A stretch of 64,000 bases of DNA, taken from the NCBI GenBank assembly GCA_903825645.1, contig CAIKBL010000040.1, positions 1 to 64,000 on the forward strand. The letters run 5' to 3'. The DNA comes from an uncultured Pseudomonadota bacterium. GTDB lineage: Bacteria > Pseudomonadota > Gammaproteobacteria > Ga0077536. A model generated the notes under the pieces. It had not been told where the DNA came from. It did no database searches and was given only the letters and a program-made list of their open reading frames with translations. The translations under genes and the position numbers were made by a program. Below, piece by piece: positions 4,170-57,064 of this stretch. Every line of letters begins with the position of its first letter. Position 1 is the stretch's first letter.

Positions 4170-4338
4170 CAGAATCTCGCCGAGCATCCTTTAACGGGAG
4201 ATGAACCCCACAGCTGGCACACCGAACCAGACGGTCCTGCACGCCGGCGCGTGGCACACGCGTCCGCCGGACCCCGCGGTAAAGGCGGAATGCAAACCAC
4301 ACAATTGCAACGATGGCCAACAGCCGGACAATCCCCAT
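4132..4338 (-). CDS. Small membrane protein with zinc ribbon, PP0621 family
   Basis: A 68-residue protein with one N-terminal transmembrane helix (MGIVRLLAIVAIVWFAFRLY), a basic stretch, and a half zinc-ribbon CASCGVHLP followed by CAHHQH near the end. This is the pattern of the PP0621 family, whose genes often sit just before pilS. The function is unknown. AGGA lies about 9 nt before the ATG. Its 3-prime end overlaps the start of pilS, which suggests translational coupling. The family is recalled from the motif and the neighbourhood, and the call is fairly secure despite the small size. Confidence 0.8.
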   Translation of the reverse strand: MGIVRLLAIVAIVWFAFRLYRGVRRTRVPRAGVQDRLVRCASCGVHLPLKDARRDSDDAPVCAHHQHR

Positions 4339-8301: not shown

Positions 8302-8340
8302 GGAGAAAGGGGACGCTCGGCCCCGCTCAGGCGTTTATTT
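8297..8340. terminator. Hairpin between convergent nadE and bamD
   Basis: CCTGAG at 8297-8302 pairs with CTCAGG at 8326-8331. An inner GGGG/CCCC stem (8309-8312 with 8321-8324) lies inside, and TTTATTT follows. This fits an intrinsic terminator for nadE, and the hairpin could also serve bamD, which ends at 8335. The internal loop is asymmetric, so the confidence is moderate. Confidence 0.45.
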
Positions 8341-9132
8341 GACGCGCGTGCGTTCGATTTCGATGATGCCCGGGTTGTCCGGATAGTTAGTCCGCAGGAC
8401 ACGTAGCGTACTGTCTGACAAGTCATTCAACTCCAACACGCGGTAGGCTTTGGCGAGGATCACGAGCGCTTGGGGGATGGCCTGTGTCTGTTGGAAGTTT
8501 TCGATGACATAGCGTGCGCGATTAGCGGCGGCCACAAATGCGCCGCGCCGCATATAAAAATTTGCCACGTTAATTTCGTGCTGCGCCAGTGTATTGCGCA
8601 AATAAATCATTCGTTGCCGAGCGTCGGGCGCGTAGAGGCTCTCGGGGAAACGCTTGACGAGCTCGGAAAAATCATTGAACGACTGCAGCTCCGCGCCGGG
8701 ATCACGTTGTGCGGCATCACGCGGCAGGAAGCGCGCCGTCATTCCCTTATCAGGATTGAAATTCACCAACCCACGCAGATAAAACGCGTAATCGGTACGC
8801 AGGTGGGCCGGATTTAGTTTCAGAAAGCGGTCGATGGTCGCCAAAGCTTCTTCGGTTTTGTCCGACTTGAACTGACAATATGCCATTTCAAGCTGCGCCT
8901 GCGGGGCGTAGGTACCGAAAGGATAGCGGGCCTGCAGTTTCTGGTAATAATCGATTGCCGCATCACAAGTTCTGTTTACGAGGCGTTTTTTGGCTGCCAG
9001 ATAGAGTTTTTCCTCAGGCCAGTTCTCTGCCAGTTCGCTCGCATCCTTCTTGTGGCCAAAAAAGCTGCACGCTGAAAGACTCAGGCACAGCAGGAGGGGA
9101 AACCAGGTTCGACGGAGACACACAGCGTACAT
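8335..9132 (-). CDS. bamD: Outer membrane assembly lipoprotein BamD
   Basis: The essential lipoprotein of the BAM complex that inserts beta-barrel proteins into the outer membrane. From the chosen ATG it has 265 residues. The signal peptide is MYAVCLRRTWFPLLLCLSLSAC, with lipobox LSAC and lipidation on that Cys. TPR-type repeats follow (YQKLQARYPFGTYAPQAQLEMAY and later copies). An upstream GTG at 9195 would add 21 residues that do not look like a signal peptide, so I prefer 9132, though its ribosome binding site is poor. It is divergent from rluD, as in many gammaproteobacteria. Confidence 0.94.
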   Translation of the reverse strand: MYAVCLRRTWFPLLLCLSLSACSFFGHKKDASELAENWPEEKLYLAAKKRLVNRTCDAAIDYYQKLQARYPFGTYAPQAQLEMAYCQFKSDKTEEALATIDRFLKLNPAHLRTDYAFYLRGLVNFNPDKGMTARFLPRDAAQRDPGAELQSFNDFSELVKRFPESLYAPDARQRMIYLRNTLAQHEINVANFYMRRGAFVAAANRARYVIENFQQTQAIPQALVILAKAYRVLELNDLSDSTLRVLRTNYPDNPGIIEIERTRVK

Positions 9133-9314
9133 GGGGGCAAAATATCGCCTATATTTTGGAAAGGGGCGCCGGTAGCCGCCTAGCAGGTACCTCACCGCGC
9201 ACTATTCTAGCGTTTTACGCCGCTCACCACAGCGAATTGACGAAAATAAAGGCCGCGCACACGGATATATCGGCAACTCCCTGCAATCGTTCCATGTGTT
9301 GATAGAATGGGAAC

Positions 9315-10292
9315 ATGCTTATTACCGCCACCCAGCACCAATACATCGTTCCTGAACAACTGTCCGGCCGCCGTTTGGACGCGGCGCTTGCCGCATTGTG
9401 CACCGATTATTCCCGTACCGTCATCAAGACCTGGATTGAGTCGGGCGAAGTCAGTGTCAATGAGGTGGAAAACCGCAAACCGCGCACGCTGGTCTATGGG
9501 AGCGACCGCATCTCCTTGCGGGCGCGTGTAGAAGATACGCAGGAAATCGAACCGCAGGATTTACCTTTCGCACTGGCCTACGAGGATGAATTCGTTCTGG
9601 TAATCGACAAGCCCCCGGGCTTGGTCGTGCATCCGGGCGCCGGCAATCCTGACCGCACGCTCGTCAACGGTTTATTGTTCCGGTTTCCGTCACTGCTGGG
9701 TCTACCGCGGGCCGGCATTATCCACCGACTAGACAAGGATACCTCCGGCCTGCTGCTCGTCGCCCGCACCGCGGCCGCCTATCAGTCGCTCACGCGCCAG
9801 ATGGCGCGGCGCGAGGTCCGCCGGGTCTATGCAGCGCTCGTGCATGGCGTTCCCGTAGGTAGTGGAACCGTCAATGCCGCCATGGGAAGAGACCGCGTCC
9901 AGCGCACGCGAATGCGCGTTTCGGCCAGTGGGCGGGAAGCCATCACGCATTATCGAATTTTGAAGCGATTCCGCGCACACGCCTACTTGGAATTGGCGCT
10001 TGAAACCGGTCGGACCCATCAAATTCGCGTCCATATGCAGCACTTGGGTCACCCCCTTATCGGCGATCCGACGTACGCAAAAGGACGCATCGCGCCTAGT
10101 CGTTCAAGTTCAACGCTCAACACGGCACTTAAAAGTCTGTGTCGTCAAGCGCTGCACGCCAAAGAACTCGAATTCACACACCCGGAAAGCGGCGAGCTGG
10201 TTGCTGTCAAAAGCGCGCTCCCTGGTGATTTCCGGCGCGCCCTGCGCGCACTGGGCCTCGATCTCAAAACCATATCTGTGGCGAGTGACTGA
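9315..10292 (+). CDS. rluD: 23S rRNA pseudouridine synthase RluD
   Basis: Isomerises uridines in helix 69 of 23S rRNA (1911, 1915 and 1917 in E. coli). It has 325 residues. The N-terminal S4 RNA-binding domain (GRRLDAALAALCTDYSRT) is followed by the RluA-type catalytic domain, with the active-site Asp in GIIHRLDKDTSGLLLVAR and a later ETGRTHQIRVHMQHLGHPLIGD. It is divergent from bamD and overlaps the downstream pgeF by 8 bases. Confidence 0.96.
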   Translation: MLITATQHQYIVPEQLSGRRLDAALAALCTDYSRTVIKTWIESGEVSVNEVENRKPRTLVYGSDRISLRARVEDTQEIEPQDLPFALAYEDEFVLVIDKPPGLVVHPGAGNPDRTLVNGLLFRFPSLLGLPRAGIIHRLDKDTSGLLLVARTAAAYQSLTRQMARREVRRVYAALVHGVPVGSGTVNAAMGRDRVQRTRMRVSASGREAITHYRILKRFRAHAYLELALETGRTHQIRVHMQHLGHPLIGDPTYAKGRIAPSRSSSTLNTALKSLCRQALHAKELEFTHPESGELVAVKSALPGDFRRALRALGLDLKTISVASD

Positions 10293-11028
10293 GCGCCCTG
10301 CGATTGAAGTGATTCGCCCTCAATGGGCCGCGCCGGCACACGTCCAGGCGCTATCCACAACCCGCGCAGGCGGCGTCAGCCGCGGCCACTATGCAAGTCT
10401 GAACCTGGCGACCCATGTCGGCGATGAGCCGGACGCCATTGCCCGCAATCGCGCACATCTGAAGAACGCGCTGAACCTGCCAGGAGAGCCCTGCTGGTTA
10501 ACACAAACACACGGCACGGTCTTAATCGAAGCTCGTCGCTATCCAACGCCTCCGGAAGCCGATGCCTGTTTCTGTGTCCGCCCCGGTCAGGTGTGCGCTA
10601 TTTTGACCGCAGATTGTCTCCCTATCCTACTGTGTGATCGCCGGGGAGAAACGCTGCTCGCGGTGCATGCCGGTTGGCGAGGCCTCCTGGAGAACATCAT
10701 TACCAAAGCCCTTGACGCATTACCGATCGCGCGTCGCGACTGGTTAGCCTGGATAGGACCCGGGATTGGCGTCGAGGCTTACACTGTCGGCACCGAGTTA
10801 GTCGCGCGCTTCTGCGCCCAGGACGCCGGTAACAGCGCCTGCTTTGTCCACGGGAATGATTCGATCAAGGCGAACCTCCCCGCGCTGGCCGAACGACAAC
10901 TGCAGCGTGCTGGGGTCACTGCGGTTTCCCGCTACGAGGGATGCACCGCGGCGGAGTCCGCACGCTTCTTTTCCTATCGCAGGCAAGGGATCACCGGCCG
11001 CATGGCCACACTTATCTGGCGGCAATGA
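10285..11028 (+). CDS. pgeF: Multi-copper oxidase/purine nucleoside phosphorylase family protein PgeF
   Basis: A 247-residue YfiH/PgeF protein. The family is linked to peptidoglycan editing and purine nucleoside phosphorylase activity and was once called laccase-like. The metal-site residues appear in TQTHGT, ILTADCLPILLCD and AVHAGWRGL. I chose GTG 10285, inside the end of rluD, because the family start lines up with VIRPQWAAPAHVQALSTTR. A longer reading from 10000 runs through rluD in another frame and is not credible. The 8-base overlap indicates coupling with rluD. Confidence 0.93.
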   Translation: MTERPAIEVIRPQWAAPAHVQALSTTRAGGVSRGHYASLNLATHVGDEPDAIARNRAHLKNALNLPGEPCWLTQTHGTVLIEARRYPTPPEADACFCVRPGQVCAILTADCLPILLCDRRGETLLAVHAGWRGLLENIITKALDALPIARRDWLAWIGPGIGVEAYTVGTELVARFCAQDAGNSACFVHGNDSIKANLPALAERQLQRAGVTAVSRYEGCTAAESARFFSYRRQGITGRMATLIWRQ

Positions 11029-11065
11029 ACTTCAGGCGGTCCCGTGATCGCCACACGCTCGAGGC

Positions 11066-11094
11066 CTTGATAAAGCCACCCCCCCCCCCCATCT
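11066..11094 (+). promoter_or_regulatory. Sigma-32 (heat-shock) type promoter for clpB with poly-C tract
   Basis: CTTGATA at 11066-11072, 14 bases, then CCCCATCT at 11087-11094. This matches the RpoH consensus CTTGAAA, 11-16 bases, CCCCATNT, with one mismatch. A run of 12 C (11079-11090) supplies both the end of the spacer and the C residues of the -10 box. The start would be near 11101, about 30 nt before the clpB ATG. clpB is a classic RpoH-controlled gene. Confidence 0.65.
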
Positions 11095-11133
11095 AGTACT
11101 CAAGCCAATATTCCAATCGGAGCACTTCACGAC

Positions 11134-13704
11134 ATGCGTGCCGAAAAAATGACGACAAAATTCCAGCAGGCGCTGGGCGACGCACAGAGCAGCGCGCTCG
11201 GGCTCGACAACCAATTTATCGAGCCCATGCATCTCATGGGTGCCTTGCTCGAACAGGAAGGAAGTACGGTAAAACCGCTCCTGACCAAAGCGGGCGTGGA
11301 GGTTCCCACCTTACGTGCTCAACTGGGAGAGGCACTGACGCGCCTACCAAAAGTAGAAGGCGCAGGCGGCGATGTCCACCCGTCGAATGATCTGGTGAGA
11401 TTACTGAACCTCTCGGACAAACTTGCCCAGAAACGGGGTGACACGTTCATCTCATCAGAGTTATTCGTCCTGGCGGCTCTGCAGGACGGTGGCGAGATGG
11501 GTCGAATCTTGAAACGGACCGGAGCACAGGAAAAAGCGATCCTTCAAGCCGTGGATGAATTGCGGGGCGGAGACAAAGTGGCCGACCCTAACGCCGAAGA
11601 AAACCGTCAGGCGCTCGAAAAATACACTATCGATTTGACTGCGCTTGCGGCCCAAGGAAAACTCGACCCGGTGATTGGTCGGGATGAAGAAATCAGGCGA
11701 ACCATCCAGGTTTTGCAGCGCCGAACCAAAAATAATCCCGTGCTCATAGGGGAGCCTGGCGTTGGCAAGACCGCGATTGTAGAAGGGCTCGCCCAACGCA
11801 TCATCAACCATGAGGTACCCGAGGGACTGAAAAACAAACGTGTCCTTTCACTCGATCTTGGTGCCTTGATTGCCGGAGCCAAATTCCGCGGAGAATTTGA
11901 AGAACGCCTCAAAGCGGTCCTCAATGATTTGTCCAAGCAAGAAGGACAGGTCGTACTCTTCATCGACGAGCTGCATACGATGGTTGGCGCAGGCAAAGCA
12001 GAGGGCGCGATGGATGCGGGAAATATGTTGAAACCTGCGCTCGCGCGTGGCGAGCTCCACTGCATCGGTGCGACAACCCTTGATGAATATCGAAAATACG
12101 TCGAGAAAGATGCCGCTCTGGAACGTCGTTTTCAGAAGGTTTTGGTGGAAGAGCCTTCTCTCGAAGATACCATCGCCATCCTTCGTGGCCTAAAGGAGCG
12201 ATACGCTGTCCACCATGGGGTCGAGATCACAGATCCCGCCATCGTCGCCGCGGCCCAGCTATCACATCGCTACATCACGGATCGGCAACTGCCGGATAAA
12301 GCCATTGATCTGATCGACGAGGCGGCGAGTCGAATCAGCATCGAAATCGATTCCAAACCGGAAGAAATGGATCGACTTGACCGCAAGATCATCCAGTTAA
12401 AAATAGAACGTGAGGCCTTGCGCAAAGAAACGGATGCCGCTTCCAAGCGCCGCCTTGCCGATTTGGAAAGCCAACTTGCAGAACAAGAACGCGATTACTC
12501 GGATCTCGAGGAAATTTGGAAGGCTGAAAAAGCCTCCTTGAGCGGCGCTCACCAGATCAAGGCTGAGCTGGAAAAAGCGAGAGGCGACTTCGAAGCCGCA
12601 AAGCGTACCGGCGATCTGACCCGGATGTCTGAGCTGCAATACGGCGTGATCCCTGCGTTGGAAAAGCGTAACGCGAGCCAAGGCGAAACCGAGCAACAGA
12701 TGAAACTGCTCCGAAATAAGGTGACAGAGGAAGAGATTGCCGAGGTCGTCTCTAAATGGACGGGCATCCCGGTGTCGAAAATGCTCGAAGGAGAGCGGGC
12801 AAAACTCCTTCGCATGGAGGATGCGCTCCACGCGAGGGTGGTCGGCCAAGACGCCGCCGTCACCGCGGTGTCTAATGCCATTCGCCGCTCTCGCGCCGGC
12901 CTGTCCGACCCGCGGCGTCCGAACGGTTCTTTTCTCTTTCTTGGACCTACCGGCGTGGGCAAAACCGAGTTATGCAAGGCGCTGGCGGCTTTCCTGTTCG
13001 ATACTGAAGAGGCGCTGGTACGTATCGATATGTCCGAGTATATGGAGAAGCATGCCGTTGCACGCCTGATCGGCGCGCCGCCTGGCTACGTGGGGTATGA
13101 AGAGGGCGGATATCTGACGGAAACGATTCGGCGAAAGCCCTATTCGGTGCTTTTGCTGGACGAGATCGAGAAAGCGCATCCGGACGTATTCAATATCCTG
13201 CTGCAGGTTCTAGATGATGGTCGGTTAACGGACGGACACGGACGTACCGTTGATTTCCGCAACACCGTCATCGTCATGACATCCAACCTGGGTTCAGAGC
13301 AGATTCAGGCACAGGGCGAGGACGCGAGCTATGAGACTATGCGCGAGATGGTACTAGGGGTCGTCCGCGATAGCTTTAGGCCGGAATTCGTGAACCGCAT
13401 CGACGAAGTAGTGGTGTTTCATGCGCTGCGACGACGAGAAATCAAGGCGATCGCCGTGACGCAGATCGGGTTGCTCCGCAAGCGCCTTGCCGATCTCCAG
13501 ATTGGACTGGAGATCGAGGCGCCTGCGGTCGATAAACTGGGAGAGATGGGGTTCGATCCCGTCTATGGTGCACGGCCGCTGAAGCGGGTGATTCAAAATG
13601 AACTCGAAACGCCGTTGGCGCAAGCCTTGCTCGAAGGCCGCTTTGGACGCGGAGAGACCATTCGGATACGCCTCGAAGGCGGCAAGTTCAAGTTCACCCA
13701 ATGA
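11134..13704 (+). CDS. clpB: Disaggregase chaperone ClpB
   Basis: An ATP-driven ring that pulls proteins out of aggregates with the help of DnaK, acting in the cytoplasm under heat stress. It has 856 residues. The N-terminal Clp domain ([15 protein letters not shown]) is followed by a first AAA+ module with Walker A GEPGVGKT. The middle coiled coil, about residues 400-530, is rich in Glu, Lys and Arg and distinguishes ClpB from ClpA. The second AAA+ module has GPTGVGKT. There is no IGF/L loop for ClpP binding. The ATG is preceded by GGAG about 12 nt upstream. An internal start, common for ClpB, was not assessed. Confidence 0.97.
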
Positions 13705-57008: not shown

Positions 57009-57064
57009 GGGTATGTTCCTTTTTGAGTTGGGGGGGGGATCCTGCCGACAATACGGCTCACTGT

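What the first reader, a model, noticed from the sequence alone, without database searches (positions are those of the whole stretch)
11066..11094. Poly-C run forms part of a heat-shock promoter in front of clpB
The sequence shows CTTGATA, 14 bases, CCCCATCT, a near-perfect RpoH promoter. A 12-C run makes up the end of the spacer and the CCCC of the -10 box. Slippage of this run during replication would change the spacer while keeping the -10 box, so ClpB level could vary between cells. That last step is inference. A run of C this long is also a common assembly error.
Basis: partly seen in the sequence, partly recalled or inferred. Interest (0 to 1): 0.5.

Follow-up and report, generated by a model that had tools for sequence, protein, structure and literature searches.

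The report
Heat-shock promoter with overgrown C run
In front of the gene for the protein-rescue machine ClpB lies an ordinary bacterial heat-shock switch in which a normal stretch of four to five C letters has grown to twelve in this genome; the switch is very probably real, but nothing found shows that the run is used to vary ClpB between cells.

Summary
It is very probably a sigma-32 (RpoH) promoter. Such a box precedes clpB in 26 of 30 genomes read, this one included, against 0.08 expected in shuffles. The genome carries rpoH, and like boxes precede dnaK, grpE and an hsp20 gene. Gene order matches E. coli K-12. The long run is private: the other 25 boxes have 5 C or fewer, and no other genome of 36 in the family or 369 sampled in the class has 8 or more C there. 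Spacing is the family's usual one, so the run fills the spacer without stretching it. A parallel exists: lon promoters of another proteobacterial group have 5, 7, 9 and 10 C at spacing 19-20. This fits drift and slippage from the built-in CCCC seed under selection on spacing better than a maintained phase-variation switch. Reads and same-species strains could not be examined, so variation between cells stays untested.

The parts
11066..11072 (+). -35 element CTTGATA (sigma-32 type; 6 of 7 to CTTGAAA)
   Evidence: sequence; CTTGA at this place before clpB in relatives
11073..11086 (+). 14-base spacer, its last 8 bases all C
   Evidence: sequence; CTTGA-to-AT distance 20, as in 15 of 26 boxes, this one included
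11079..11090 (+). run of 12 C spanning the end of the spacer and the CCCC of the -10 box
   Evidence: sequence; not found at such boxes in other family or sampled class genomes
11087..11094 (+). -10 element CCCCATCT (matches CCCCATNT)
   Evidence: sequence; consensus quoted in PMC6687850 (passages)
11100..11104 (+). expected zone of transcription start, 6-10 bases after the -10 box (inferred, not mapped)
   Evidence: inference from the position of the -10 box
11119..11122 (+). GGAG, likely ribosome binding site of clpB (inferred)
   Evidence: sequence
11134..13704 (+). clpB, ATP-dependent chaperone ClpB, 856 aa
   Evidence: TIGR03346 and NF008118 above cut-off
10285..11028 (+). pgeF/yfiH, gene upstream; start at GTG 10285 inferred
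   Evidence: on 10300-11028: TIGR00726 above cut-off (173.5 of 141.15), NF007998 below its cut-off
9315..10292 (+). rluD, 23S rRNA pseudouridine synthase
   Evidence: NF008385 354.3, cut-off 351

Best explanation
This is the sigma-32 (RpoH) promoter of clpB. RpoH-RNA polymerase reads CTTGATA and CCCCATCT at a normal spacing and starts transcription near 11100-11104, giving a leader of 30-34 bases (position inferred). The 12-C run is a lineage-specific overgrowth of the 4-5 C that most such boxes carry. It grew by point changes and slippage into the spacer, which sigma-32 contacts only weakly, while selection held the distance between the boxes at 19-20 (inferred). One C lost or gained would give a distance of 19, which relatives use, or 21, which is uncommon. 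So run-length changes are expected to give mostly mild, incidental variation in ClpB and not a programmed switch (inferred).
For: Box and run read directly. A box lies 59-84 bases before clpB in 26 of 30 genomes, own included (25 of 29 others); 19 have strict CTTGA-N14-17-CCCCAT; shuffles give 0.08 (relaxed) and 0.01 (strict) per 30. E. coli K-12 clpB has CTTGA...CCTCATTT at the same place, spacing 19, and the same bamD-rluD-yfiH-clpB order. rpoH present, 394.7 bits, cut-off 323.1. Seven CTTGA-N13-18-CCCCATNT sites in the genome against 0 for the reversed pattern; four lie before clpB, grpE, dnaK and an hsp20 gene. Eight or more C at such a box: 1 of 36 family genomes and 1 of 369 sampled class genomes, both the own genome. 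Of the 126 sites listed (spacing fixed by the pattern at 19-20), 87 have 4 C, 37 have 5, 1 has 6, 1 has 12. Spacing is 19 or 20 in all 26 clpB boxes although 18-21 were allowed, and in 133 of 150 listed sites of another group, 18-21 allowed. C growth at lon at kept spacing: 5, 7, 10, 9 C at 19, 19, 20, 19. sigma-32 contacts the spacer weakly (PMC10216364 passages).
Against: No transcript or heat-shock data. Four of 30 regions have no box by the relaxed pattern (L020, L021, L027, L029; L027 and L029 keep half-matches). The -35 has T for A at its sixth base, though CTTGAT is common in these clpB boxes. Against 'mild': for an Ehrlichia sigma-32 promoter tested in E. coli, a GC-rich spacer halved activity, and a spacer of 18, 15 or 14 instead of 17 caused a major decline (PMC6687850 passages; that promoter lacks the C-rich -10), and PMC10216364 states that spacer length greatly affects transcription (passage). 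A run of 12 C could be kept for a reason not visible in single genomes.
Confidence: 0.8

Rival explanations
1. Contingency locus: the C run slips during replication, changes the spacer of the sigma-32 promoter and makes cells differ in ClpB level, which selection uses.
For: The run of 12 C lies between the boxes and includes the CCCC. In the opc promoter of Neisseria a parent had 11 C and high-expressing variants 12, and a mutS mutant showed length changes in three of five experiments (PMC3447861 passages). Spacer length mattered for an Ehrlichia sigma-32 promoter (PMC6687850 passages). A second sigma-32 promoter (lon, G401) has 10 C, and its relative of 93.3% DNA identity has 7.
Against: Not found in relatives. 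Spacing stays at 19-20 in the four cases with 7 or more C that I found and could place, as if change were selected against. By the own genome's run statistics about 3-12 sites with 8 or more C would be expected in 369 genomes (2-7 sites each), and one was seen (rough). In the opc study none of 89 colonies of the repair-proficient parent changed.
Confidence: 0.1
2. Assembly error: the run length is wrong or the run is an artefact of assembly.
For: Genome in 90 contigs; contig C3 begins with 17 C, so long C runs may trouble this assembly.
Against: The run is internal to a 225,583-base contig, and the boxes around it sit at the family's spacing with 12 C. Another genome shows a similar run in a different sigma-32 promoter, though that too is a metagenome assembly.
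Confidence: 0.07
3. Not a promoter: chance match to the consensus beside a C run.
For: No transcript data.
Against: A box in 25 of the 29 other clpB upstream regions, rpoH, and boxes at dnaK, grpE and hsp20. No sigma-70-type site was found in 10900-11200 that could take its place.
Confidence: 0.03

Closest known systems
sigma-32 (RpoH) promoters of E. coli heat-shock genes (dnaKp1, clpB)
   Same: CTTGAa -35; -10 CCCCATTT in dnaKp1 and CCTCATTT in clpB; CTTGA-to-AT distance 19 in both, 20 here; place before clpB and gene order.
   Different: 12 C instead of 4; T at the sixth base of the -35.
opc (opcA) promoter poly-C tract of Neisseria meningitidis
   Same: Run of 11-12 C inside a promoter (PMC3447861 passages).
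   Different: There length is reported to dictate expression of a surface protein and to vary within strains; neither is shown here. That its promoter is of another sigma class is my recollection, from no call.
sabA T-tract rheostat of Helicobacter pylori
   Same: Homopolymer next to promoter elements that tunes output (PMC4081817 passages).
   Different: Tract lies beside the -35 and acts through DNA structure and RNA polymerase binding; T not C; length variants tested there.
lon promoter of Pseudomonadota MAG-71 (L108, genome G401)
   Same: sigma-32-like box with 10 C merging into the -10 box, spacing 20, about 69 bases before the lon start.
   Different: Other gene, other group; three relatives have 7, 5 and 9 C.

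Membership tests
sigma-32 (RpoH) promoter | -35 CTTGAAA-like and -10 CCCCATNT | tested here: met
   CTTGATA and CCCCATCT; one mismatch, at the sixth base of the -35
sigma-32 (RpoH) promoter | spacing as in known sigma-32 promoters | tested here: met
   CTTGA-to-AT 20; E. coli clpB 19; dnaKp1 scaffold in PMC10216364 19 by my count
sigma-32 (RpoH) promoter | cognate sigma factor in the genome | tested here: met
   TIGR02392 over its cut-off
sigma-32 (RpoH) promoter | conserved before the same heat-shock gene | tested here: met
   26 of 30, own included
sigma-32 (RpoH) promoter | transcription start just after the -10 and induction by heat | not testable with these tools
   no expression data
phase-variable homopolymer promoter (contingency locus) | long homopolymer between or at promoter elements | tested here: met
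   12 C
phase-variable homopolymer promoter (contingency locus) | tract length varies within the species | not testable with these tools
   one genome per species held; no reads
phase-variable homopolymer promoter (contingency locus) | tract kept across related species (often, not always, true of such loci) | tested here: not met
   own genome only
phase-variable homopolymer promoter (contingency locus) | length changes expression | not testable with these tools
   needs reporter assays

The most novel reading that the evidence does not exclude
Sigma-32 promoters carry a built-in CCCC seed, so they may repeatedly grow into unstable poly-C promoters: hot spots that make heat-shock chaperones and proteases (ClpB here, Lon in another group) vary heritably between sister cells.
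Probability: 0.08. Interest if true: 0.65.

Novelty: new member of a known kind. Interest (0 to 1): 0.27.

Why it matters
If run length does alter ClpB output, the stress tolerance of a cell line would be set by a fast-mutating promoter, a kind of bet-hedging known for surface proteins. I found no report of it for core heat-shock genes in four searches of an open-licence library (two returned nothing, 22 showed 20 of 30 papers and 48 showed 10 of 20, titles and abstract starts only). As the evidence stands, the case is a natural test of how freely the spacer of a sigma-32 promoter can change when its length is held.

Tried and rejected
Plasmid collection, near mode: no match. sigma-70-type promoter in 10900-11200: none. 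One exact-pattern scan of the 84,980-species collection for CTTGA-N6-12-C10-ATNT gave 28 stretches (the window's own genome may be left out). 18 of the 28 overlap an open frame of 60 aa or more. By inspection of frames only L108 lies before a recognisable heat-shock gene, lon; some stretches hold little sequence downstream (L092 116 bases, L112 314), so a few could have been missed, and only L108's protein was checked with a family model.

Chance. In the own genome about 0.8-1.1 per 10,000 C/G runs of at least 4 reach 12 (the lower figure leaves out the contig-end run). With 3-7 boxes per genome and 369 genomes this gives 0.1-0.3 expected cases with 12 or more, one seen; for 8 or more C it gives about 3-12 expected, one seen. 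Both are rough, since other genomes differ in composition. A special cause is not needed, and long runs are if anything scarce at these boxes.

Of the seven sigma-32-like sites of the own genome, C17 (spacing 17) and C81 (spacing 22) have no heat-shock gene recognised behind them and are probably chance; C18 (spacing 19) is unresolved.

Coverage. One search covers 30 of the 56 genomes with a match, namely those for which loci were given; some of the other 26 matched only over ClpA-like parts or fragments. together cover all 126 rows listed (91 and 35). together cover the 150 rows that I copied (106 and 44); that tool says that more matches exist but are not listed. The spacing range of each pattern limits what those counts can show.

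Full report
What is there. CTTGATA occupies 11066-11072, 14 bases follow, and CCCCATCT occupies 11087-11094. The C run is 11079-11090, 12 bases; its first eight are the end of the spacer and its last four the CCCC of the -10 box. clpB starts at ATG 11134 and codes for 856 aa, recognised by two ClpB models above their cut-offs; upstream lie rluD and pgeF. E. coli K-12 has the order bamD-rluD-yfiH-clpB; in the window the bamD-like gene at 8335-9195 (minus strand) was recognised by eye from its sequence and place, not by a model.

Is it a sigma-32 promoter? ClpB was searched in 58 genomes (own and relatives); 56 had a match, some of them only ClpA-like, and 30 loci were fetched, the own one included. 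In the 200 bases before clpB, 19 of 30 carry the strict pattern CTTGA-N14-17-CCCCAT and 26 of 30 a slightly relaxed one, against 0.010 and 0.080 per 30 in dinucleotide shuffles. The boxes begin 59-84 bases before the start codon. Four loci (L020, L021, L027, L029) have none by the relaxed pattern; L027 and L029 keep half-matches. E. coli K-12 shows CTTGA...CCTCATTT at the same place. The own genome carries rpoH. It has seven CTTGA-N13-18-CCCCATNT sites and none for the reversed pattern; four lie before clpB, grpE, dnaK and an hsp20 gene, two have odd spacing and no heat-shock gene recognised, one is unresolved. The E. coli consensus CCCCATWT or CCCCATNT and the C-rich extended -10 are quoted in PMC6687850 (passages); PMC10216364 (passages) reports weak contacts of sigma-32 to the spacer.

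Is the run special? In the own genome C/G runs of 10 or more occur seven times in 4.13 Mb: 17 at the end of contig C3, 12 here, 12 on C81, and four of 10. In 400 kb of the same genome 2,581 C/G runs of at least 4 were counted, and one reached 12, this one. In the 26 clpB boxes the run next to AT is 12 here and at most 5 in the other 25. In the 126 sigma-32-like sites listed for 58 genomes it is 4 in 87, 5 in 37, 6 in 1 and 12 in 1. A pattern with 8 or more C at the box matched only this genome, in 36 of the family and in 369 sampled from the class (the reversed control matched once). By the own genome's run statistics about 3-12 such sites would be expected in 369 genomes, so long runs look scarce at these boxes (rough).

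Spacing. Counted from CTTGA to AT, all 26 clpB boxes have 19 (11) or 20 (15), although 18-21 was allowed; this one has 20. The run therefore replaced spacer bases and did not stretch the promoter. Loss of one C would give the other common spacing.

A parallel case. One scan of 84,980 species for 10 or more C at such a box gave 28 stretches; one, L108 (Pseudomonadota MAG-71), lies about 69 bases before a lon gene and after a frame that looks by eye like clpX (Lon confirmed). Its relatives were searched (37 of 40 genomes with a match, G401 itself included; 30 loci read). Three of the 30 have 7 or more C before lon. The closest relative, with 93.3% DNA identity over 4.3 kb, has 7 C; the next has 5 C with one T just before; one at 82% protein identity has 9 C. 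Spacing is 20 for the 10-C promoter and 19 for these three. In the 150 sites listed for this group (spacing 18-21 allowed) the run is 4 in 96, 5 in 43, 6 in 8, and 7, 9 and 10 once each, these three all at lon; spacing is 19-20 in 133 and 18 or 21 in 17. The difference between 5 and 7 C can be read as one T-to-C change that joins neighbouring C; that between 7 and 10 as three other spacer bases traded for three C, with one base gained elsewhere. Direction and steps are inferred from a few sequences.

Reading. A consensus sigma-32 box carries CCCC, and its spacer is weakly contacted. Point changes beside the seed and slippage can lengthen it, while selection on spacing trims the rest. That explains a private long run at normal spacing, in two groups. 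Whether the run is also unstable enough to matter for ClpB is open. In Neisseria opc a parent with 11 C and high-expressing variants with 12 are reported; none of 89 colonies of the repair-proficient parent changed, while a mutS mutant did change (PMC3447861 passages). For an Ehrlichia dnaK promoter, spacer length and a GC-rich spacer altered activity (PMC6687850 passages), so an effect of run length here is possible. Searches for poly-C or homopolymer tracts in heat-shock or clpB promoters showed no such report among the listings seen (partly capped lists, open-licence library only).

Verdict. Promoter: very probably real. Run: very probably real, its exact count not certain. Phase variation: untested, and made less likely by lack of conservation. 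Interest is modest.

Noticed in passing
G000:C81:49704-49715 (L073:5405-5416), outside the window: The only other 12-C run away from a contig end in this genome; it lies about 45 bases before a start codon of a long open frame that looks (by eye, no model run) like a sulfite reductase flavoprotein.
   Followed up: no
G000:C3:1-17 (L074): The contig begins with 17 C, which suggests that the assembly broke at a poly-C run or ends in an artefact.
   Followed up: no
L117, about 4205-4320, downstream of lon: Matches at steps of 6 bases show a six-base tandem repeat near the end of this locus in G402, shared with L116.
   Followed up: no
G000:C18:41668-41695: A sigma-32-like box with normal spacing and no recognised heat-shock gene directly behind it.
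   Followed up: partly
window 57030-57038: A run of nine G (on the + strand), the only other C/G run of 8 or more in the window.
   Followed up: no
L166 (E. coli K-12), 2654-2796: In E. coli the annotated small RNA RyfD covers the clpB leader and promoter region; whether the window has a counterpart was not examined.
   Followed up: no
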